NCBI RefSeq assembly: GCF_036322705.1
Contig: NZ_AP027270.1
Coordinates: forward strand, 310,001 to 374,000
Reading direction: 5' to 3'
Origin: Maricaulis maris
GTDB lineage: Bacteria; Pseudomonadota; Alphaproteobacteria; Caulobacterales; Maricaulaceae
Length of the DNA: 64,000 bases
A model generated the notes under the pieces. It worked only from the letters and a program-made list of their open reading frames with translations. It ran no database searches and was not told the DNA's origin. A program made the position numbers and the translations under genes. Of the stretch, positions 10,971-60,207 are shown piece after piece (positions within the stretch are counted from its first letter, which is position 1; the number at the start of each line of letters is the position of its first letter).

Positions 10971-12298
10971 GCGGGCCGGCGACGCCGCCAGCACCCATCG
11001 GCCAGCCCGTGGCCGGTGTGATGGTGGCGGATGATACGCAGGAGGGGCGTGAACAGGCTTATACCGATTTCGTCGAGGATAATCTGAGGCGGAACTATAT
11101 CGCCCATTTTGCCCACGGCATGTTGGGCATGACCGGTTTCCGGCTGATTTTCGCGCCGACCTTTGTGCCGGCCTATCTCTACATGCTGACCGGCTCCTCG
11201 GTCTTTGTCGGTCTCGGTCAGGCGCTGATCCAGCTCGGCGCGATCGCCTCGCCGGTCATGGGGGCCGCGCATATCGAGCATCGCCGGCTGGTCTTGCCGG
11301 CGGCGATGACGATCGGTGTGCTGATGCGTTTTCAGCTGCTCGGGCTCGCCGTTGCCGGCTGGTTCCTGACCGGCTCGGTCCTGGTGGCCGCGACCTTCTT
11401 CTTCCTGCTGTTGTTCGGCTTCTTCCTCGGATCACAGCGTGTGGCCTTCCAGGTCGTTCTCTCGAAGGTAATCCCGATCCGCATGCGGGGCCGGCTCCAG
11501 GCCTGGCGAAATATTGTCGGCGGGGCGATCGCGGCGGCCCTGTCCTGGTGGGCCGGGGCCCACCTCATCGAGAACAATGCCTTCGGCAATGGCTATGCAA
11601 CGACCTTCATGGTCGCTTTCGTGCTGACCAGCCTGGGGCTGGCGGCCCTGTGGATGTTCATGCGCGAGCCGGAGAGTCCGACCGTAAAGGTCCAGATGGG
11701 CGTGATGGCCCGGATCCGGGAATTCCCGCAGCTCCTGGTCGATCGCGACTATCGCAACTTCCTGATCGCCCAGATGCTGGCGACTTCCGGCCGGATCGTG
11801 ATCCCCTTCTGCATCATCTATGCAGGCCGCAAGATGGAGGTCGACGGCGCCGCTATCGGCCTGTTTTCGCTCGCCTTTCTGGGTGCCGACACCCTGACCA
11901 ACCTGATCTGGGGCACGCTGGGCGATCGTTATGGCTTCCGGCTGACCTTCATCCTGACCGTGGCGACCTGGATCGTCTCCCTGGTGGTCATGATTTTCGC
12001 CGACTCACCCTGGCACTTCCTGATCGCCTTCTTCGGTCTGGGGGCGGCGGCATCGGGCTACATGATGAGTTCCACGACCCTGGTCCTCGAGTTTGGAAAG
12101 CGCGACGACATTCCGATGCGCCTCGCCTTGTCGACGACGGTTGAAACCTCGATGGCGACGGTCGGACCGATCCTCGGCGGTGTGATTGCCAGCTTTGCCG
12201 GCCTTCTGCCGGTCTTCATCATTTCACTGCTCAGTCTTGTTGCGGCGCTTGCCGTTCTCGTTTCCGCAGTACGCGAACCGCGTCATCTTAAAGTGTGA
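10967..12298 (+). CDS. MFS transporter, last gene of operon
   Basis: An inner-membrane protein of up to 443 residues with about 11-12 hydrophobic segments and the loop LWGTLGDRYGFR (MFS motif-A-like) in the second half. It overlaps the stop of the second ACAD by 4 bases if the TTG at 10967 is the start (TTGA overlap); ATG at 11021 would give 425 residues and begins nearer the first conserved segment, so the start is uncertain. A second transporter at the end of an acyl-CoA operon suggests uptake of the substrate or release of an intermediate. The specific cargo is not visible from the sequence. Confidence 0.8.
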   Translation: MSGPATPPAPIGQPVAGVMVADDTQEGREQAYTDFVEDNLRRNYIAHFAHGMLGMTGFRLIFAPTFVPAYLYMLTGSSVFVGLGQALIQLGAIASPVMGAAHIEHRRLVLPAAMTIGVLMRFQLLGLAVAGWFLTGSVLVAATFFFLLLFGFFLGSQRVAFQVVLSKVIPIRMRGRLQAWRNIVGGAIAAALSWWAGAHLIENNAFGNGYATTFMVAFVLTSLGLAALWMFMREPESPTVKVQMGVMARIREFPQLLVDRDYRNFLIAQMLATSGRIVIPFCIIYAGRKMEVDGAAIGLFSLAFLGADTLTNLIWGTLGDRYGFRLTFILTVATWIVSLVVMIFADSPWHFLIAFFGLGAAASGYMMSSTTLVLEFGKRDDIPMRLALSTTVETSMATVGPILGGVIASFAGLLPVFIISLLSLVAALAVLVSAVREPRHLKV

Positions 12299-51525: not shown

Positions 51526-52359
51526 ATGCGAGTTTCCCTCTTGGTCGTTGCGACCTGTGTCGGTCTTTCTTTGGGGCTCGGTGCGTCGAGGAGTGGCGCT
51601 GATGCGGATGCGCGTGACCCGGCGCCGCCTGTCGGCGTGTCGGGCGTTCAGCTGTCCGCGCGCTATGCGTCGTCGGTCCTGGTCTTCAAGGTCGGAGAGA
51701 TCACGCTCAACGCGCAGCTTGGCCCAAATGGCTATGCGGCAGACGGCTATATCGAAGCCGCCGGTCTTGCCGCGCTTTTCACCGATTTTGACATCCGCGC
51801 CGAGGTGCGTGGCTCGGGCGTAAACGGTGAACGCGAGCCGGCGGTGTATGGTCATGTGGAGCGGACCGGATCGAAAATTCGCTCGGTCCGCGTCGACTTT
51901 GCCGGCCCAGTGGCCCGATCCGAGGTCGAGCCGCCGTTTGGATCCCTTGGCGTTCCGCCGGCCAGCGAGGCTGACCGGACCCGTGTGATCGACCCGATAA
52001 CGGCCTTTTTCGAGCTATCGAGACGACTGGAGGGCGGTGAAGGCTGCACAGGGCGTCTACCGGTCTTTGATGGCAAGGCGCGCTATGACCTTCGTCTGGA
52101 AACGGTAGGGCGCGAGCGCGTCCGGACCCGCGGTTGGCGCGGCGAGGCGCTGATCTGCCAAGCTTGGTATGAGCCCATATCGGGCTATGACCCGGAGGAC
52201 TACCCGAGCGAATCAGAGCTGCGGCACCCTCTGGTCCTGTGGCTGGCACCGGTCGCCGGGGACGGCGCTTATCTTCCGGTGCGGCTGCATACCCGGGCCG
52301 GGTTCGGTGGCGTGACCATCGAGCTCATCGAGCTTGAGGTGTCGCAACGGGCTTCCTGA
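51526..52359 (+). CDS. DUF3108 exported protein
   Basis: A 277-residue protein with an N-terminal signal peptide (about 1-27, [21 protein letters not shown]) and a beta-rich body. [28 protein letters not shown] near the start and [11 protein letters not shown] later resemble DUF3108 (predicted periplasmic, lipocalin- or barrel-like, unknown function). ATG at 51526 with AAGGA (51516-51520) is chosen over GTG at 51511. It follows edd by 65 bases but has no clear metabolic link; read-through is possible. Cysteines at about 176 and 214 may form a disulfide. Confidence 0.72.
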
Positions 52360-52793
52360 TCCAAAATATTTGAGATCGTGACCGTCATCACAGGCGGCAG
52401 GGTCGCAGGGGGATAGTCTTTCCCCACCGCTCTGCGAGCGGCCCCAAACTCCCGCCTCCGGTCGGCCGGAGCGGGATGGGCGGGGCGCACGACCTTGCCC
52501 AAGCGAAGCCCCAACTTCGCCTTGCGCCCCGCCGCCCCCGGTCTTCGACAGCTCTTGGCTGGACGAAGGTGTGTCGATACGCCGTCGGCAGCCGTCCCAA
52601 CCGGAATATCAGCGAAACGATTGGCCTTGGGCTCACGTACTCGCCATCCTGGCAAGGAAAACGTGTTGAAAGCTGAGTTTGCCAAGTGTGAACGCGACCT
52701 CCAGCGGTTGCACGCGATCCGGTAAGCGCCAATGATGGGCGGGGCAGTGTTGGGGGCCGGGTCTTTTCGGGTCGGGCGCTTCGGGGAGAGGGC
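52360..52793. other. 434-base gene-free region before the TIR operon
   Basis: No gene with conserved features is visible on either strand. A GC-rich imperfect hairpin (52451-52461 with 52466-52475, one bulge at 52455) could act as a terminator for the DUF3108 gene, though no T-run follows. The rest is GC-rich and non-repetitive. A promoter for the TIR operon is expected here but no clear -35/-10 was found. Confidence 0.5.
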
Positions 52794-54839
52794 ATGAGTG
52801 CGGGGACACGCTATCGGGCGTTTATCAGCTACAGCCATCGGGATCAGGGCTTTGCCCGCTGGCTGCACCGCCAGCTTGAGACCTATGTGGTGCCGTCGCA
52901 CCTCGTCGGACGGGACGCGGCGCAGGGCCCCGTCCCGCGCCGTCTGACGCCGGTTTTCCGGGACCGTGAAGACCTCGCTGCAGCGGGCGATCTGACGGCC
53001 TCGGTCCGCGACGCGCTGACCCATTCCGACGCCCTCATCGTGGTTTGCTCACCCGCCGCTGCGGCGTCGCGCTGGGTGAATGAGGAGATCCGCGCTTACC
53101 GACATCTCAATCCCGCCGGAACAGTTCTGGCCGCCGTGCTCGAAGGCAACCCTGATGCAGGTCCGGATGCCGAACCGGGCGAGGCGTGTTTCCCCGAAGC
53201 CCTTCTTGAGGCAGGCGCCAACGGCGTGACCACCGAGCCGGTTGCAGCCGATATGCGTCGACAAGCCGATGGGCGCCGCATGGCCCTTCTCAAGCTTGTC
53301 GCGGGGCTTTTGGGTCTCAGTCTGGATGAGCTTATCCAGCGCGACCTCCAGAGACGACAACGCCGTGTGACCGCCATCACAGGTGGATTGATCCTGCTTT
53401 CGGTTATCATGTCTACACTGACGCTGCTCGCTGTCTCGGCGCGATCCGAGGCGGAGCGGCGCAAGGCCGAGGCCGAGGACCTCATTGAGTTCATGCTGAA
53501 TGACCTGAGAGACAATCTCGAACCCGTGGGCCGCCTGGACGCGCTCGATGCGGTCGGTGCCAAGGTGATCGAGTATTATGATCGTCAAAGCGAGGGGGCG
53601 ATGACGACTGACGAGCTTGGTCGACGGGCGCGAGCCTTCCATTTGCTGGGCGAGATCGACAGTGCGCAGGGCGATCTGGACAATGCCTACGAGCATTTTC
53701 GCATTGCCTACCAGTCGACCAGTCGCATTCTTGCGGTCGAGCCGACCATGCCGGCGCGGATTTATGAGCACGCTCAAAGCAGTTACTGGGTCGGGTATTT
53801 CGCCTGGCGCCGTGCCGATCTGGACATGGCCGAGCGCCGCTTTGTCGAGTATCGGGATCTCGCCAACCAGCTGATCGAAATCGATCCGGACAATCCCGAA
53901 TGGCAGGCTGAGGTCGCTTACGCCCACTCGAATATTGGAACCCTGCAGGTCGCCCAGCGGCGTTGGCATGATGCCCTCATTCCCGCGACGGCGGCCCTCG
54001 AGCAGTTTCGTGTGATTGCCGAGGCCCAGCCCGACAGCAATGCGGCGTGGATGGAGGTCGTCGAGACCCTGGCCTGGGTGGCGTCGATTTCGGAGATCAC
54101 GGACGGCCGGGACGCGGCCATCAGCATTCTTCGCGAACAGCTTGCCCTCTACGATAGCGGGCGCCCGGATCCGACCAATGACTGGCACGCAAGGCGCGGG
54201 GCGATCGCAGCAGAATATGCGCTGGCGCGTCTCCTGATCGCTACCGGTGACCAGACATCGCAGGACGATATTGAGGGCGCGCTTGAAATCCTTGAGCCGG
54301 CTTCGCTCGAAGCGGCGACCCTGATTGCCCATGATCCGGAGAACCTGGAATGGCGTCTTATCGGGGTGCGTCAACGCCTTTGGCTTGCCCAGGCCGAGAT
54401 CTATGGCGGTCGCATCGAAGCCGCGCGAGATGCTTACGTCGCCGCGACCGGTTTCATGGCCCATGATTCCTGGGGCTCGGCTGAAGGCGCCCGGTTTGCT
54501 GTAACCCGACTGCACGCAAGTCTGATCGAAGCCCGTATTTTTGCCGCCCGCGGTGATTACGCGGCCGCGCAGGCCTCGGTCGAGCACATGCTTGCGACGC
54601 TGGGGCAGGTCGATGATTGGGCCGGGGCGCTTGAGCGGGCTCCCTACTACTATTCCGCCGGTGCCAACACGCTCGCCGATGCGCTCGAAGCCCAGGGCCA
54701 ATTGGCACAGGCACGCCGTATCCGCGAAGATGTCGTGCGTCGGCTCGAGCCTATTCGTAACCGGATTCGCACGGATTCAACCTCGGAACTCGACTATGCG
54801 CGGCGCTCACTCGAGCGTGCGCTCCTGTCTGCTGACTAG
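52794..54839 (+). CDS. TIR-domain membrane protein with TPR-like C-terminus
   Basis: A 681-residue protein. An N-terminal TIR_2 domain (about 5-150) begins YRAFISYSHRDQGFARWL, includes FRDREDL, and has CSPAAAASRWVNEEIRAY, where Glu98 in WxxxE-I matches the NAD-hydrolysing Glu of SARM1-like TIR enzymes. A linker with basic residues (about 155-192) precedes one membrane helix (about 195-215). The rest (about 216-681) is a helical-repeat, TPR-like sensor. It is first in an operon with an unknown protein and a cyclase-homology protein. A role in NAD-based defence or in signalling scaffolds is inferred. GGGAGAGG precedes ATG. Confidence 0.88.
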   Translation: MSAGTRYRAFISYSHRDQGFARWLHRQLETYVVPSHLVGRDAAQGPVPRRLTPVFRDREDLAAAGDLTASVRDALTHSDALIVVCSPAAAASRWVNEEIRAYRHLNPAGTVLAAVLEGNPDAGPDAEPGEACFPEALLEAGANGVTTEPVAADMRRQADGRRMALLKLVAGLLGLSLDELIQRDLQRRQRRVTAITGGLILLSVIMSTLTLLAVSARSEAERRKAEAEDLIEFMLNDLRDNLEPVGRLDALDAVGAKVIEYYDRQSEGAMTTDELGRRARAFHLLGEIDSAQGDLDNAYEHFRIAYQSTSRILAVEPTMPARIYEHAQSSYWVGYFAWRRADLDMAERRFVEYRDLANQLIEIDPDNPEWQAEVAYAHSNIGTLQVAQRRWHDALIPATAALEQFRVIAEAQPDSNAAWMEVVETLAWVASISEITDGRDAAISILREQLALYDSGRPDPTNDWHARRGAIAAEYALARLLIATGDQTSQDDIEGALEILEPASLEAATLIAHDPENLEWRLIGVRQRLWLAQAEIYGGRIEAARDAYVAATGFMAHDSWGSAEGARFAVTRLHASLIEARIFAARGDYAAAQASVEHMLATLGQVDDWAGALERAPYYYSAGANTLADALEAQGQLAQARRIREDVVRRLEPIRNRIRTDSTSELDYARRSLERALLSAD

Positions 54840-54895
54840 AGACATTCGATCCGGATACCGGGTCAGGACCAGCCTACGCCTCAGAGGGAAACCCT

Positions 54896-55504
54896 ATGGC
54901 CGGAACGATCAAGGACGCGTTTGACGGGTCCATCATGCAGGAAGACCTGTCAGGCGCCTGCGGCCTGACCCCGACCCAGACACAAATCAGTCTTATCGCC
55001 CAGGCGACTGACGGTTTCACGGTCATGAACGGCAGCGATGTCGGTCGTGAGTTGTTTGATGATGCCGAGATTTCACAGATTTTCGTTGTCTTCGCCGAGA
55101 CTGTGAATGAGTTTCGAAATGCCGACGCCTCAACCTTGCGCACCGCCCTCGCCGCCGCCCTGGCGGGGCTGTGGACTCCCTGTTCTGCCGAGAATCCCTG
55201 TCCGTTCGACCAGAGCGTCCACGGGCGGACCCGCATCATCTTCAATCTTCATGTTTCCGGCTGGGGGTTCGAGAAGGCCCGCATGAAACTGCTCGATCCG
55301 GCCGCGGTAAGCCAGTTTTGCGGACTGGACTGGCTGACCCTGAATGGTGAAAGCTGCAAGCCTTACAGTTTTCAGATCCAGACCAGGCCGGTCGAAGCCG
55401 AAGCCGTTTATGAATTTGCGCTCTTCATCAATGCGTCCCAGGACGCGGGTAACCAGACCACACGGATCATCATCGATCCCGCAGTCCGCCTCTCGCCGCC
55501 CTGA
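54896..55504 (+). CDS. unknown protein in the TIR-cyclase operon
   Basis: A 202-residue protein I do not recognise. There is no signal peptide or membrane segment. The N-terminal half is helical and polar (DGSIMQEDLSGACGL, ELFDDAEISQIFVVFAETVNEF); the C-terminal half is beta-rich (RIIFNLHVSGWGFEK, YEFALFINAS, RIIIDPAV). There are six Cys, five of them in about 100-165. GAGGGAAA precedes ATG at 54896. The gene lies 56 bases after the TIR gene and 47 before the cyclase gene, so the three form one operon. It may be an adaptor or a ligand-binding subunit; this is a guess from context. Confidence 0.72.
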   Translation: MAGTIKDAFDGSIMQEDLSGACGLTPTQTQISLIAQATDGFTVMNGSDVGRELFDDAEISQIFVVFAETVNEFRNADASTLRTALAAALAGLWTPCSAENPCPFDQSVHGRTRIIFNLHVSGWGFEKARMKLLDPAAVSQFCGLDWLTLNGESCKPYSFQIQTRPVEAEAVYEFALFINASQDAGNQTTRIIIDPAVRLSPP

Positions 55505-55551
55505 TCCAGCGCCCACCCGGTTGCCGGCCGCTCCGGTCCGGGAGGTTCGTT

Positions 55552-57387
55552 GTGCGTGAACGGATCCTGGAGCGCTTCAATCAAGGCGACCTCGCCCGGG
55601 CTTACGATCTCTGCCAGGACGGTCTGCAGGACAGCCCCGGCGACATCTGGCTGCAACACCGCGCCGTCCTTTGCCTGATCCGGTCAGGTGCCCTGGAACG
55701 GGCGGCAAACGCCTATCATGATTATCGCCTCGCCGAGGTCAGGCACGATGAGGACTGCCTCGCGATCGGGGCACGCCTCGCGAAGGCGCTCACACTGGAA
55801 ACCTCGGGGTTTGAATTCGCGCGCCGCGCCCGCGACAGCGCCCGCAAATATGCCGATGTTCATACCCGGACCGGTGGGCATTATCCTGCAGTGAACGCCG
55901 CAAGCATGTTCATGCTCGCCGGTGAGCCGGGTCCGGCGGAAACCTATGCGCGGCAGGTCCTGTTCGGGGGATTTGAGGGGGCTGATGGGAGCGCGGAGCA
56001 GGCTTATTACCGACATGCGTCACAAGCCGAAGCCTATCTGCTGCTCGGAGACCTTTCGGCTGCGCGGTCGACCCTCCGCCATGCCTTCCGCCAGGATCCC
56101 GACAATCATCTCGCCCATGCGACGACCCTCCGCCAATTGCGCCTGCTGGTCGGTGTGCTGGGTCTGGATGCCGACTGGCTGACAGAGCTTGAGCCGCCGC
56201 GCCCCACCCATTTTGCCGGTCATATCTTCGGTCAGGGGCAGGGCGACGGGCAGCTTGATCCCGGGCAGGAAAACCGCTTGCGAGACGTGGTTGATGCGAT
56301 GCTGTCCCGCCATCATGTCGGACCGGTCCACGGGGCACTGGCGGCCGGCTCCGATATTGTGATTGCCGAGGCGGCACTGGCGCACGGCTGCGAACTGAAT
56401 GTCGTTCTGCCCGTTCCCGTGCCGGTTTTCATGGCAGCCTCCGTTCGCCCGTTCGGCGATGCCTGGGTCCGGCGCTTCGAGGCTTGCCTCGACCGGGCGG
56501 AGAAGGTCGTCGAGCTGACGACGGACCGCCGCATCCTGTCAGCGGCTGCGCTGAACTTCGCCAGCCTCGTGGCCATGGGCCTCGCCCGCATGCGGGCCGA
56601 CGTGCTTGCCACCGCGCCCTTGCAGCTGCTGGTCGCCGAGGCCCCGGGCATGGAACCGGTTGCCGGGTTCGGGACCCTTCATGATGGTGAAGTCTGGGCC
56701 GGTTGCGGGCTCGAGCAGGTTCGCATTGATTATCCGGGGGTCCGCGACCCGAACCCGGGCAAGCCGCTGCCGGCGGCTGATCTGGAACCCGGTTTCAAAC
56801 CTGTGATGCGCGCCATGCTTTTCCTCGATATTGCCGGCTCTTCGGCGGTGCCGGACGATCGGGTGCCTCATTTTGTGCAGACGGTCCTCAAGCCGCTCGC
56901 CCGCTGTTGCGACCAGTTGGCTGAACCCGCAGTCCATGCGGACAGCTGGGGCGACGGCATGTTTCTCGCGTTTGAAACCGTTGAGCAGGCAGCGCGCGCG
57001 GCCGAAGCCCTGCGCCAGGCTTTTGTTGCGATCAATATGCGTGATCTTCAATTGCCGACCTCGCTCGGTCTGCGGATTGCCGGGCATTTGGGGCCCGTGC
57101 ATGAGGGCGAGGATCCGTTGCAGAAGCGCCCGTCCCTGTTTGGCGGGCAGGTCGCGGTGGCGGCCCGGATCGAGGCGGTCACCGTTCCCGGATCGATCTT
57201 TGTGAGTGAAGCCTTTGCGGCAGCGCTTGCCATGTCGTCTGAGGCGTTTCGCAGCGAGTATGTCGGCCAGATCCGGATTGACGCGCTGATGCCGGAATAT
57301 CGCCTCTACGCCCTCAGGGCCTTGCCGCTCAATGCCGCCGCCAATCTACGCCGGAGCCGATCAGCTCGAGCCGCGCAGTCGATCTAG
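55552..57387 (+). CDS. TPR / SLOG-like / class III cyclase-homology protein
   Basis: A 611-residue cytoplasmic protein in three parts. The first 200 residues are helical TPR-like repeats. The middle (about 215-370) has GALAAGSDIVIAEAALAHG and VVLPVPVPVFMAASVRPFG, like SLOG-type nucleotide-sensing domains. The C-terminal class III cyclase-homology domain (about 418-590) keeps both metal Asp residues (Asp426 in FLDIAGSS, Asp468 in SWGDGMF) and Arg539, but the transition-state Asn is Ala535 (VAVAAR) and the purine-selecting Lys position is Asp464. Activity is therefore uncertain. GTG at 55552 has GGAGG 6 bases upstream. Its end overlaps the convergent Crp-family gene by 27 bases. Confidence 0.83.
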   Translation: MRERILERFNQGDLARAYDLCQDGLQDSPGDIWLQHRAVLCLIRSGALERAANAYHDYRLAEVRHDEDCLAIGARLAKALTLETSGFEFARRARDSARKYADVHTRTGGHYPAVNAASMFMLAGEPGPAETYARQVLFGGFEGADGSAEQAYYRHASQAEAYLLLGDLSAARSTLRHAFRQDPDNHLAHATTLRQLRLLVGVLGLDADWLTELEPPRPTHFAGHIFGQGQGDGQLDPGQENRLRDVVDAMLSRHHVGPVHGALAAGSDIVIAEAALAHGCELNVVLPVPVPVFMAASVRPFGDAWVRRFEACLDRAEKVVELTTDRRILSAAALNFASLVAMGLARMRADVLATAPLQLLVAEAPGMEPVAGFGTLHDGEVWAGCGLEQVRIDYPGVRDPNPGKPLPAADLEPGFKPVMRAMLFLDIAGSSAVPDDRVPHFVQTVLKPLARCCDQLAEPAVHADSWGDGMFLAFETVEQAARAAEALRQAFVAINMRDLQLPTSLGLRIAGHLGPVHEGEDPLQKRPSLFGGQVAVAARIEAVTVPGSIFVSEAFAAALAMSSEAFRSEYVGQIRIDALMPEYRLYALRALPLNAAANLRRSRSARAAQSI

Positions 57388-58047
57388 CTGGTCAGGATCC
57401 ACAAGCTCGATCCTGTCCTTGACCTTGTCCAGCAGACCTTTGCGTTGCAGGTCGTTGACCGTGCGAGACGCGGTCTCGCGGGTCGAGTTGACCCGCATTG
57501 CCAGCTCCTTCATTGACGGCGCCGGTGTGATCGTCCGGGCCCGGCCATCGGACCCGACCGGCCGCGACATGCGCAGCAGCTCGGCATAGATGCGGCCGGG
57601 CGCTGACAGGGCAGACAATTCGAACATGCGCTGGGTTGTGTGCTGGACCCGTCGGGCCAGTATGCGCGAGAGCGCCAGGCCCAACTCGCCATGAGCCCGC
57701 ATCAGCTCGAAGAAGGCCTTGCCCTCGTAGACCGCAAGATCGCACGCCGTTTCTGCGATGATACCCGAGATCCTGGGCTGCCCTGTCAGCGCCGCCAGTT
57801 CACCGAAGACGGTGCCGGCTTCAAAGGCGTCAAGCCAGATCTCCTGGCCATTCTCGGAGAGCAGGACAACACGCGCGCGGCCATCAAGAAGCAGAAAGAC
57901 CCTGTCGTCAGCCTCGTCTTGCGAGATGATGACTGACCCGGCGGAGACCCGGTTCCGTTCCGCCTGGCGGGTCAGGTCCAGGCGCGCCGCACCGTTCTGG
58001 ATTCCCAGATCGGTGAGGGCAGCATTCCAGGCCGGATCGGGCGTCAT
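57361..58047 (-). CDS. Crp/Fnr-family transcriptional regulator
   Basis: A 228-residue regulator with a cyclic-nucleotide-binding domain (about 20-135) and a winged helix (about 150-228). The phosphate-binding cassette reads FGELAALTGQPRIS: Glu83 and Arg92 match CRP Glu72 and Arg82, but the next position is Ile rather than Ser. There are no Fnr-type cysteines. The recognition helix STRETASRTV has Arg190, Glu191 and Arg195 in the CRP pattern, so a TGTGA-like half-site is predicted. ATG at 58047 follows AGGAG. It is convergent with, and overlaps, the cyclase-homology gene, so the two may form one signalling circuit. Confidence 0.92.
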   Translation of the reverse strand: MTPDPAWNAALTDLGIQNGAARLDLTRQAERNRVSAGSVIISQDEADDRVFLLLDGRARVVLLSENGQEIWLDAFEAGTVFGELAALTGQPRISGIIAETACDLAVYEGKAFFELMRAHGELGLALSRILARRVQHTTQRMFELSALSAPGRIYAELLRMSRPVGSDGRARTITPAPSMKELAMRVNSTRETASRTVNDLQRKGLLDKVKDRIELVDPDQLDRLRGSS

Positions 58048-58227
58048 GCGGTCTCCTGCGGGGGGCGGCTGGCTCGTCTTGTCCGGAACCAACCACGCGA
58101 AGCCTAGTGAGCTTCGACGAAAATGCCAGCGAATTCGGTTGCTTGTCATCCAATCACTTGTGAATGGCATCGCCATTCGCGGAAAGGGTCGCTAAACTAA
58201 GGTGAACACTGTTCTCGGGAGGGGGCC
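58048..58227. promoter_or_regulatory. divergent control region, crp-like / alkylsulfatase-like
   Basis: This 180-base region has two perfect inverted repeats: CGAAGC-N7-GCTTCG (58098-58116) nearer the crp-like gene and GAATGGC-ATC-GCCATTC (58162-58178) nearer the lipoprotein gene. Either may be an operator. No CRP-type TGTGA-N6-TCACA site was found. Confidence 0.45.
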
Positions 58228-60207
58228 ATGCGGCCGATAACGCGTGTACTGGTGGGGCTTTGCCTGGTGCTGGCGAGTTGCGGGGAGGGTGTGTCCGTGC
58301 CCGCGCCGATGACCGACATGGCGGGCCCGGATGCGGCCGGATTCAATCCGGCGGACGCGTCCACAGCCCGTGCGAATTCTGCCGTGGCGGGGCGGATTGC
58401 GTCCATCGACAGCGATGACGAGGCACTGGCGATGCGCGGCTATATCGGTCGCGACGAAGCGCTCGAAATTCGTAATCCCGATGGCGAAATTATCTGGCGT
58501 CCGCAGGATTATGCCTTTTTGGAGAACGACCCCGCGGCCAGTGTCCATCCCGGTCTGTGGCGGCAGGCCGCGCTCAACCAAATACACGGCCTGTTCGAGG
58601 TGGTTCCGGGAATCTACCAGGTACGGGGCTATGACCTTGCCAACATGTCGGTGATCGACGGTGAGACCGGACGCATCATCATCGACCCCCTGACCTCGGT
58701 GGAGACAGCCCGGGCCGCCCTCGACCTGGTGAACCGGGAACTCGGTGAGCGCCCGATCAGTGCGGTCATCCTGACTCACTCTCATATCGACCATTTCGGC
58801 GGTGTCGGTGCTGTCGCGGGACCGGACACGCCGATCATCGCCCCGGCCGGTTTCCTGGAGGCTTCGGTCAGCGAAAACGTGATGGCCGGCATCGTGATGG
58901 GGCGGCGGGCCGGCTACATGTACGGAACGCAGCTACCCCGCTCGCCGCGTGGCCATGTCGGCGCAGGGCTGGGGAAACATCCCGCGTTGGGCACGCATAC
59001 AATCGCGCTGCCGACCCAGATCATCGATACGACCGGCCAGACGCTGGAGATTGATGGCATCAGGATGGAATTCCAATACGCCCCCGAAACCGAGGCGCCG
59101 GCCGAGTTGACGGTCTTCTTCCCGGACCTGCAGGCCTGGTGCGGGGCGGAGCTGGTGTCGCGGACCATGCACAATCTCTACACGCTCCGGGGCGCCCAGG
59201 TGCGCGATGCCGTGGCCTGGTCGGGGGCCATCGATGAGGCCCTCCGGCGCTTTGGCCCGCGCACCGAGGTCATCTTCAACAGCCATCACTGGCCGGTCTG
59301 GGGCGAGGCCGAGAGCGCCGACTTCCTCACGGCCCAGCGGGATGTCTACAAATACATCCATGACCAGACCCTCCGGCTGGCCGCCCAAGGTCTCGGGCCG
59401 GATGCGATCGCCGAGGCGATCACCCTGCCGGACAGTCTCGCCGACGTGTTTGCCGTGCAGGGGTATTACGGGACGTTGAAGCATAATTCCCGGGCCGTTT
59501 ATCAGCGCTATTTCGGTTGGTATGATGGCGTGCCCGCCCATCTCGACCCGCTTCCGCGCGTCGAGGCTGCGCAGCGCTATGTGGCGGCCATGGGCGGCGT
59601 TGAGGGTGTCAATGCGCGCGCCTTGGAGGCTCTCGAAGCGGGCGAGTATCGCTGGGCGGCGGAGCTGGCACAGCACGCAGTATTCGCCGAACCTGACAAT
59701 GAAACCGCTCGCGACACCCTGGCCCGGGCCTATGAGCAACTGGGTTATGCGGCGGAATCAGCGCCATGGCGGGACAACTATCTGACCGGCGCCTATGAAT
59801 TGCGGAATGGTGTGGAAGCCCTGGACGCCACGGCGGCCGGGACGGCCATGCTGCAGGCCATTCCGCTCGACCTGTTCTTCTCCGCCATGGCGACCCGTCT
59901 CGATGGCGAGCGTGCAGCCGGCCAGGACCGGGTGTTCAATTTCATCTTCTCCGATGTCGGCGAGACCCATGTCGTCAGCCTGTCGAACGGCGTCATGCAT
60001 CACCGTCGGGCCGATCCGGTTGAGGGCGCCGACGCCAGCGTCACCCTGACACGGGGCTTCTGGTTGCGGCTGCTGCAACAGCAGGCCGGGGTGATGGACA
60101 TGATCGGATCGGACGAGTTTTCTGTCCGCGGCGACCGGATCGCGCTGCTCGGCTTCTTTGCCATGCTGGAGCAACCGCAACCCGATTTTCCGATTGTCAC
60201 GCCCTGA
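58228..60207 (+). CDS. alkylsulfatase-type metallo-beta-lactamase lipoprotein
   Basis: A 659-residue SdsA1/YjcS-like enzyme, which cleaves sulfate from alkyl sulfates such as dodecyl sulfate. The leader ends LVLASC, a lipobox, so it is anchored as a lipoprotein (Cys18). The metallo-beta-lactamase zinc motif is THSHIDH (His184, His186, Asp188, His189) with further ligands in FNSHHWP. Then come an alpha-helical dimerisation domain (about 450-560) and an SCP2-like C-terminal domain (about 560-655). GGGAGGGGG precedes ATG. Family members also act on other sulfate or ester groups; the lipoprotein form suggests degrading external surfactants or sulfated lipids. Confidence 0.9.
   Translation: MRPITRVLVGLCLVLASCGEGVSVPAPMTDMAGPDAAGFNPADASTARANSAVAGRIASIDSDDEALAMRGYIGRDEALEIRNPDGEIIWRPQDYAFLENDPAASVHPGLWRQAALNQIHGLFEVVPGIYQVRGYDLANMSVIDGETGRIIIDPLTSVETARAALDLVNRELGERPISAVILTHSHIDHFGGVGAVAGPDTPIIAPAGFLEASVSENVMAGIVMGRRAGYMYGTQLPRSPRGHVGAGLGKHPALGTHTIALPTQIIDTTGQTLEIDGIRMEFQYAPETEAPAELTVFFPDLQAWCGAELVSRTMHNLYTLRGAQVRDAVAWSGAIDEALRRFGPRTEVIFNSHHWPVWGEAESADFLTAQRDVYKYIHDQTLRLAAQGLGPDAIAEAITLPDSLADVFAVQGYYGTLKHNSRAVYQRYFGWYDGVPAHLDPLPRVEAAQRYVAAMGGVEGVNARALEALEAGEYRWAAELAQHAVFAEPDNETARDTLARAYEQLGYAAESAPWRDNYLTGAYELRNGVEALDATAAGTAMLQAIPLDLFFSAMATRLDGERAAGQDRVFNFIFSDVGETHVVSLSNGVMHHRRADPVEGADASVTLTRGFWLRLLQQQAGVMDMIGSDEFSVRGDRIALLGFFAMLEQPQPDFPIVTP

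What the first reader, a model, noticed from the sequence alone, without database searches (positions are those of the whole stretch)
52794..58047. TIR-TM-TPR, unknown protein, SLOG-like/cyclase-homology protein and Crp regulator as one module
Seen: three genes in one operon (gaps of 56 and 47 bases) followed by a Crp-family gene that overlaps the last by 27 bases tail-to-tail. The TIR domain keeps the WxxxE glutamate (Glu98) of NAD-cleaving TIR proteins. The third protein joins TPR, a SLOG-like nucleotide-sensing region and a class III cyclase fold. Known: TIR, SLOG and cyclase domains recur in nucleotide-signal defence and stress systems. Inference: the TIR or cyclase product is sensed by the SLOG-like region or the Crp protein, with the unknown 202-residue protein as adaptor.
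Basis: partly seen in the sequence, partly recalled or inferred. Interest (0 to 1): 0.8.

Follow-up and report, generated by a model that had tools for sequence, protein, structure and literature searches.

The report
TIR receptor coupled to cyclase–CRP circuit
Four neighbouring genes of a marine bacterium look like a membrane-bound immune-type sensor wired to its own second-messenger enzyme and gene switch, an arrangement kept across many relatives but not yet tested at the bench.

Summary
In detail: TIR-TM-TPR, a 202-aa protein, a TPR/Rossmann/cyclase protein and a tail-to-tail Crp gene, with the stated gaps and overlap. The module is conserved: within five genes of the best 80 relatives of the cyclase protein lie TIR in 73, CRP in 51, a 202-aa-type gene in 38. 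New evidence on wiring: in 80 of 80 loci with both genes, the cyclase triad and the CRP phosphate-binding residues are both present (50) or not both complete together (30), though that is about three events on a tree, one forced. PF00211 finds no other class III cyclase in the genome. CRP boxes are enriched upstream of TIR genes. The 202-aa protein is no obvious adaptor: its model best matches SO1698, titled an aspartic peptidase, and its family follows the TPR half of the TIR protein (59 of 71 loci with it, 0 of 26 without). Pfam names (TPR-S, pNTSase1) show that parts were catalogued before; the probable source paper was not held. The TIR-to-cyclase step is inference; a defence role has no support here.

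The parts
52377..52392 (.). perfect CRP-type palindrome CGTGACCGTCATCACA in the intergenic region upstream of the TIR operon (417 bases before the TIR start, 18 bases after the end of the DUF3108 gene)
   Evidence: not followed by a T run
52794..54839 (+). TIR-TM-TPR protein, 681 aa: TIR domain 52821-53144 (Glu98 in WVNEE), TM 53385-53441 by hydropathy, TPR half about 53457-54473
54896..55504 (+). 202-aa beta-sandwich protein with SO1698/DP-EP-like model; its family overlaps Pfam pNTSase1; Asp194-Pro195 (55475-55480) the only invariant residues of 41 aligned members
55552..57387 (+). TPR-S / SLOG-like Rossmann-type / class III cyclase protein, 611 aa: TPR-S match 55600-55908, Rossmann-type domain 56200-56730, cyclase match 56812-57285 with Asp426, Asp468, Arg539
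57361..58047 (-). Crp-family regulator, 228 aa, cNMP-binding domain 57691-57951 with GE...PR cassette and RETASR helix; overlaps the cyclase gene by 27 bases tail to tail

Best explanation
A membrane signalling module made of two coupled units. Receptor unit: the TIR domain faces the cytoplasm, one TM helix leads to a TPR half (probably periplasmic), and the 202-aa SO1698/DP-EP-like beta-sandwich protein is the partner or ligand of that TPR half. Relay unit: the TPR-S/SLOG-like/cyclase protein makes a cyclic mononucleotide whose receptor is the adjacent CRP, and CRP acts on boxes upstream of the TIR operon (and in some relatives of its own gene), closing a feedback loop. Most likely order: stimulus at the TPR half and 202-aa protein, TIR makes an NAD-derived product, the TPR-S/SLOG-like region senses it and switches the cyclase, the cNMP loads CRP, transcription changes. 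Shown by comparison: module conservation, cyclase-CRP coupling, coupling of the 202-aa family to the TPR half, enrichment of CRP boxes. Inferred: TIR activity, cyclase activity, the TIR-to-cyclase step, topology, the nucleotide made, the stimulus.
For: Co-occurrence: TIR within five genes in 73 of 80 loci, CRP in 51, both in 48, with CRP on different sides (divergent before TIR in most Caulobacter loci, tail-to-tail after the cyclase gene in Maricaulis). Cyclase triad and CRP cassette: 50 both intact, 30 neither intact, 0 discordant of 80. CRP fused to the same protein in 7 loci (L090, L191-L196). In the genome, PF00211 (E <= 0.01) finds this cyclase alone, PF00027 (E <= 1e-4) finds this CRP and a patatin-like protein. 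Boxes [TC]GTGA-N6-TCAC[AG]: 15 in 14,104 bp upstream of TIR genes against 25 in 164,180 bp of other intergenic DNA (2.1 expected, Poisson p 1e-8, relatedness not corrected); 5 against 1.6 expected upstream of CRP genes (p 0.02). 202-aa-type protein in 59 of 71 loci whose TIR protein has the TPR half, 0 of 26 without. All 6 fetched DP-EP loci (three genera of other classes) lie directly beside a 1049-1112-aa protein whose TM-TPR part matches the TIR-protein profile at 4e-48 to 9e-53; the one scanned is Trans_reg_C plus nSTAND1 plus TPR. TIR Glu in all 71 rows that cover it. A profile of the third protein hits ASK1 (5ulm, 8qgy) at E 0.0018 and 0.0051.
Against: The co-loss is three changes on the best tree and only one forced by starred branches, so no sign test can reach 0.05; the TPR-half/202-aa link has two independent changes. 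The window's cyclase has Asp464 and Ala535 where, as I recall the class, Lys or Glu and Asn are usual; the solved adenylyl cyclase Ma1120 also has Ala at the second place. The cyclase is dispensable: 16 of 81 aligned relatives lack the full triad and one more is cut short. In the wider class sample L171-L190 my profiles found TIR in 4 of 20 and CRP in 4 of 20 loci. The seven fusions have no TIR in the fetched stretch (two stretches are under 4.1 kb). Only 4 of 70 202-aa-type proteins (three distinct) have a clear export signal, which sits badly with a periplasmic TPR partner. In Maricaulis the box is 210-417 bases from the TIR start.
Confidence: 0.5

Rival explanations
1. Anti-phage or suicide system of Thoeris/Pycsar type: phage triggers the TIR or cyclase, the product activates a killing step, CRP only tunes expression.
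For: TIR with ThsB_TIR match over cut-off and conserved Glu; SLOG-like fold; TPR-S and pNTSase1 are Pfam names that, as recalled, come from a survey of prokaryotic immune systems; extra trypsin-like membrane protein in 7 of 80 loci.
Against: Present in 18 of 19 genomes of the genus in a largely syntenic place; flat base composition; PADLOC profiles match only 48 residues of the TIR domain and the cNMP/HTH parts of CRP; Thoeris ThcB4 at 16.7 of 220 bits.
Confidence: 0.2
2. The cyclase domain is a dead or noncatalytic nucleotide-binding domain; CRP is controlled by direct contact with the TPR/SLOG-like protein, and the TIR product, not a cNMP, is the signal.
For: CRP fused to a degenerate-cyclase version in 7 loci; TIR Glu retained also in loci whose cyclase is degenerate; unusual substrate residues in the cyclase.
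Against: Two metal Asp and the Arg kept in 64 of 81, and the CRP cassette kept exactly where they are kept.
Confidence: 0.2
3. The 202-aa family is a nucleotide synthetase, as the Pfam name pNTSase1 predicts, making a messenger for the TPR-S protein.
For: A slot-equivalent protein (L085, 213 aa) matches PF20301 at 1.7e-44; 6 of 41 aligned members match it at E <= 0.1, best 1.3e-6.
Against: Predicted beta-sandwich with SO1698 then PixA as best PDB matches; only Asp-Pro invariant in 41 rows; a few members carry lipoprotein-type starts; it follows the TPR half and was found in none of 26 loci without it.
Confidence: 0.1

Closest known systems
TPR-S / pNTSase1 components (Pfam PF20308, PF20301)
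   Same: TPR-S match at the N terminus of the third protein; the small protein in the same slot of a relative (L085) is pNTSase1
   Different: the window's 202-aa protein has no Pfam hit and a beta-sandwich model; the coupled cyclase-CRP circuit is worked out here; the paper I recall as source (10.1128/JB.00365-20) was not held, so an earlier description of this gene order cannot be excluded
Thoeris (ThsB TIR + ThsA)
   Same: TIR protein beside a protein with a SLOG-like domain
   Different: no ThsA-type match in the four proteins; SLOG-like domain sits in a cyclase protein; near-core in the genus
Pycsar (cyclase + cNMP-binding effector such as PycTIR)
   Same: class III cyclase, cNMP-binding domain and TIR in one locus
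   Different: cNMP-binding domain is in a DNA-binding CRP, not fused to TIR; cyclase protein has no PADLOC match
Class III cyclase-CRP signalling (recalled)
   Same: cyclase with CRP receptor and CRP-type boxes
   Different: cyclase carries TPR-S and SLOG-like parts and is genetically tied to a membrane TIR protein
SO1698 / DP-EP family (PF08985)
   Same: best structural match (E 1.9e-6, TM 0.42 by query and 0.65 by target), C-terminal Asp-Pro in register, neighbour with the same TM-TPR part
   Different: sequence similarity not significant: HMM E 0.05 at best, hhalign single-comparison E 0.03-0.04 for the family and 1.4e-4 (probability 26%) for the short forms only
ASK1 (MAP3K5) TPR region
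   Same: profile match over the TPR part, 5ulm and 8qgy
   Different: weak E-values; cyclase instead of kinase

Membership tests
TIR domain, NAD-cleaving type | TIR profile and catalytic Glu | tested here: met
   52.4 bits over 28; Glu in 71 of 74 rows, gap in 3
TIR domain, NAD-cleaving type | NAD cleavage | not testable with these tools
   no assay
Class III nucleotidyl cyclase | profile over cut-off, two metal Asp, transition-state Arg | tested here: met
   D426, D468, R539
Class III nucleotidyl cyclase | usual substrate Lys/Glu and transition-state Asn (recalled) | tested here: not met
   D464, A535; Ma1120 also has Ala at the Asn position
SLOG superfamily | sequence profile | tested here: not met
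   11 members, Pfam, E <= 10; PDB sequences; hhalign with 9 of 25 fetched LOG loci
SLOG superfamily | Rossmann-type fold like DprA/LOG | tested here: inconclusive
   strand/helix order; DprA-like phage protein, TM 0.68 by target, E 4e-4; aligned range not shown
TPR-S (PF20308) | profile over cut-off | tested here: inconclusive
   window 26.4 of 27.6 bits; two relatives 46.8 and 39.1
pNTSase1 (PF20301) | profile over cut-off | tested here: inconclusive
   no match for the window protein; 6 of 41 members at E <= 0.1; L085 213-aa protein 152.1 bits
DP-EP (PF08985) | profile match | tested here: not met
   no Pfam hit; own genome no match; five family members (four distinct) rank next after true DP-EPs among 1756 proteins, at E 0.05-1.1
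DP-EP (PF08985) | self-cleavage at Asp-Pro (recalled) | not testable with these tools
   Asp-Pro in 41 of 41 rows, four of which I had added by slot and Asp-Pro ending
Crp family, cNMP-dependent | cNMP_binding plus HTH_Crp and intact phosphate-binding cassette | tested here: met
Thoeris | ThsB plus ThsA | tested here: not met
   no ThsA-type match in the four proteins
Pycsar | PycC cyclase plus cNMP-binding killing effector | tested here: not met
   CRP matches PycTIR only over the cNMP part; cyclase protein no match

The most novel reading that the evidence does not exclude
A two-messenger cascade in which a self-cleaving (or formerly self-cleaving) Asp-Pro beta-sandwich protein gates a membrane TPR receptor with a swappable cytoplasmic output (TIR here, wHTH-nSTAND1 in other classes), and in the TIR version an NAD-derived product drives a cyclase whose cNMP is read by a dedicated CRP that controls the receptor operon: a bacterial immune-type receptor used as a core transcriptional sensor.
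Probability: 0.2. Interest if true: 0.85.

Novelty: new variant of a known kind. Interest (0 to 1): 0.62.

Why it matters
It would join NAD-derived and cyclic-mononucleotide signalling in one near-core circuit outside phage defence, give a testable enzyme-receptor pair (cyclase and CRP) in a genome with one detected class III cyclase, and suggest that a family named as a nucleotide synthetase is a peptidase-like receptor partner shared by TIR and nSTAND receptors.

Tried and rejected
Adaptor reading of the 202-aa protein: set aside after its family was found to track the TPR half of the TIR protein. Horizontally acquired defence island: not supported. SLOG by sequence: nothing from Pfam, PDB sequences or hhalign with LOG proteins. 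DP-EP by PDB sequence profile: no match up to E 10. The CRP-type palindromes as terminators: the window's site has no T run behind it and the terminator scan of 52300-58300 did not list it. PF20301 genome search rang in none of 240 genomes nor in the 14 controls, so it shows nothing about absence. No match to the 202-aa protein in the plasmid collection. Literature: no held paper had 4 of the 5 terms TIR domain, Caulobacter, adenylate cyclase, Crp family, NADase; the word pNTSase was searched only as a whole word, which cannot find pNTSase1; searches for SO1698/DP-EP gave nothing on the point. The paper that I recall as the source of TPR-S and pNTSase1 is not held. VIA-align was not available.
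Full report
Identity and observation. The window lies in a one-contig 3.14 Mb genome. One relative of the same genus, G063, has its copy on a contig of 398,192 bases, the length of the Maricaulis maris DSM 4734 contig found by name, so the genus is taken to be Maricaulis (inference). TIR_2 finds this TIR gene alone in the genome.

The module is real. The 202-aa gene is in 18 of 19 genomes of the genus (own included) and in 1 of the 118 other genomes of the family searched (19 of 137). The one genome of the genus without it also gave no match for the cyclase protein. Flanking genes (dehydratase-like, DUF3108, alkyl-sulfatase-like, peptidase-like) are largely, not always, the same across the genus. 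Of 299 genomes of the order, 60 encode a relative of the third protein, some over part of it only. A scan of named genome contigs, seeded by one conserved peptide pattern, found 233 relatives and gave the best 80, among them Maricaulis, Caulobacter, Phenylobacterium, Hellea, Robiginitomaculum, Kordiimonas, Sphingomonas and Rhodospirillaceae. Within five genes lie TIR in 73 of 80, CRP in 51, a 202-aa-type gene in 38, a trypsin-like gene in 7; TIR and CRP in 48; TIR, CRP and 202-aa type in 35. Genes were called with my own codon-usage caller, so small genes can be missed. These 80 are the closest relatives. In a wider draw of the class 27 of 385 genomes have the family at E <= 1e-20, and of the 20 loci L171-L190 my profiles found TIR in 4 and CRP in 4; one more TIR neighbour (L171) was missed by the profile and seen by Pfam. 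So the full four-gene module belongs to part of the family's range.

The third protein. AlphaFold2 gave a confident model (pLDDT 90.1, pTM 0.91): helices to about 211, a Rossmann-type alpha/beta part 217-393, a cyclase part 416-590. The 50 PDB matches listed are all cyclases; the viral library also gives a DprA-like protein (E 4e-4, TM 0.68 by target), which supports SLOG-like by fold, though the listing shows no aligned range; sequence profiles do not support it. A profile of 20 relatives hits ASK1 over profile positions 63-172 at E 0.0018 and 0.0051. In 81 aligned proteins (window included) Asp426, Asp468 and Arg539 are all kept in 64; the substrate position is Asn in 32, Glu in 16, Asp in 12, Lys in 2, and the Asn position Ser in 25, Ala in 18, Val in 17, Asn in 2. 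Ma1120, the best PDB match by sequence (E 1.6e-8), also reads Ala there.

Cyclase and CRP go together. Of 133 deduplicated loci (identical C-terminal 300 residues removed, so near-copies remain; window included), 80 have a CRP within five genes or fused. Cyclase triad intact and CRP Glu and Arg intact: 50. Triad incomplete and cassette incomplete: 30. Discordant: 0. On a quick tree of the N-terminal part each trait needs three changes; only one is forced by starred branches, and three pairs at most are independent, all in agreement where counted. The pattern is strong, the count of events small. Seven loci carry CRP and this protein as one polypeptide, all with degenerate cyclase. In the genome PF00211 finds this cyclase alone and PF00027 this CRP and a patatin-like protein; other cyclase classes were not searched.

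CRP boxes. Perfect [TC]GTGA-N6-TCAC[AG] palindromes occur in 15 of 79 TIR upstream regions (window included), against 0.05 expected in mononucleotide shuffles of 78 of them. Without the window, 15 sites in 14,104 bp against 25 in 164,180 bp of other intergenic DNA of the same loci: sevenfold. Some of these loci are close kin (for instance L122 and L145 share the site), which the p-value ignores. In the window the only two perfect sites in 64 kb are at 52377 and at 53366, inside the TIR gene. In Maricaulis the box lies 210 to 417 bases before the TIR start, so its role there is less clear. A RE[TH]xxR-type recognition helix was found by a simple pattern in 52 of 80 CRPs; the other 28 were not examined.

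The 202-aa protein. Its model is confident (pLDDT 89.3). Best PDB matches are SO1698 mutants, titled an aspartic peptidase (E 1.9e-6, TM 0.42 by query), then PixA (E 4.4e-4). That SO1698 cleaves itself between Asp116 and a Pro is recalled, not read here. In 41 aligned members Asp194 and Pro195 are the only invariant residues; four of the 41 had been added by slot and Asp-Pro ending. A profile of seven true DP-EP proteins ranks five members of the family (four distinct) next after its own kin among 1756 proteins, at E 0.05 to 1.1; most members do not score. hhalign of the whole family gives E 0.01-0.04 with probability under 4%. Six of 41 members match Pfam pNTSase1 at E <= 0.1 (best 1.3e-6), and the protein in the same slot of L085 matches it at 1.7e-44, so the family has been catalogued under another prediction. 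Presence follows the TPR half of the TIR protein: 59 of 71 loci with that half, 0 of 26 without. Of the 59, 54 are by profile and 5 by an Asp-Pro-ending rule that 42 other proteins of that length among 922 also meet; two of the 12 misses (L154, L163) show such a protein by eye. Only two changes are independent on the tree. Separately, all 6 fetched DP-EP loci (six genomes, three genera) have directly downstream of a 1049-1112-aa protein the DP-EP gene; that protein's TM-TPR part matches the TIR profile at 4e-48 to 9e-53, and the one scanned is Trans_reg_C plus nSTAND1 plus TPR. Among 1756 called proteins no protein outside the TIR-profile set, which includes these six, matched the TPR-half profile at 1e-5.

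Topology is by hydropathy only: of 93 long TIR proteins (not deduplicated) with a TM at 150-330, 66 have more Lys/Arg before it than after, 13 the reverse, 14 equal; 15 more have none. This puts the TPR half outside the cytoplasm. Yet of 70 202-aa-type proteins only 4 (three distinct) have a clear signal or lipobox; three further flags of the script are starts of short Caulobacter-type proteins. Unresolved.

Function. Near-universal presence in the genus, synteny and flat composition speak for a standing signalling role; domain names speak for conflict systems. I hold a regulatory circuit as most likely (0.5) and a defence system at 0.2. Papers: PMC7159879, PMC8195603, PMC10972558 and PMC9503650 were seen as passages; they give the general scheme of TIR, SLOG, cyclase and ASK components in bacterial conflict systems. 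Burroughs and Aravind 2020 was seen only as a reference and was not held; what I say of its content is recalled.

Noticed in passing
L090 6009-8402 and L191-L196: CRP, TPR-S/SLOG-like and degenerate cyclase in one protein of 773-803 aa; in L090 the neighbours look by eye like CysN/CysC and CysD, which suggests a one-component regulator of sulfate activation.
   Followed up: partly
L105 11590-15080: A second TIR (822 aa) and 202-aa-type (335 aa) pair near the TIR-cyclase-CRP genes of an uncultured Kordiimonas, with a CRP-type box upstream at 11456.
   Followed up: no
L069, L081, L084, L086, L087, L116, L152, L160, L164, L165, L166, L170 (some are the same locus twice): Membrane trypsin-like protein between TIR and the cyclase gene in Hellea-like genomes, beside the 202-aa-type gene except in L164.
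   Followed up: partly
L079 5092-5913, L126 6051-6878, L132 5288-6097, L134 6086-6910: Hellea versions of the 202-aa family begin with signal- or lipoprotein-type starts.
   Followed up: partly
G000:C1:963042-963299 (L219): The only other PF00027 protein found in the genome is a patatin-like protein of 580 aa.
   Followed up: no
L213-L218: A wHTH-nSTAND1-TM-TPR type protein (one scanned by Pfam) with a DP-EP gene directly downstream in 6 of 6 loci.
   Followed up: partly
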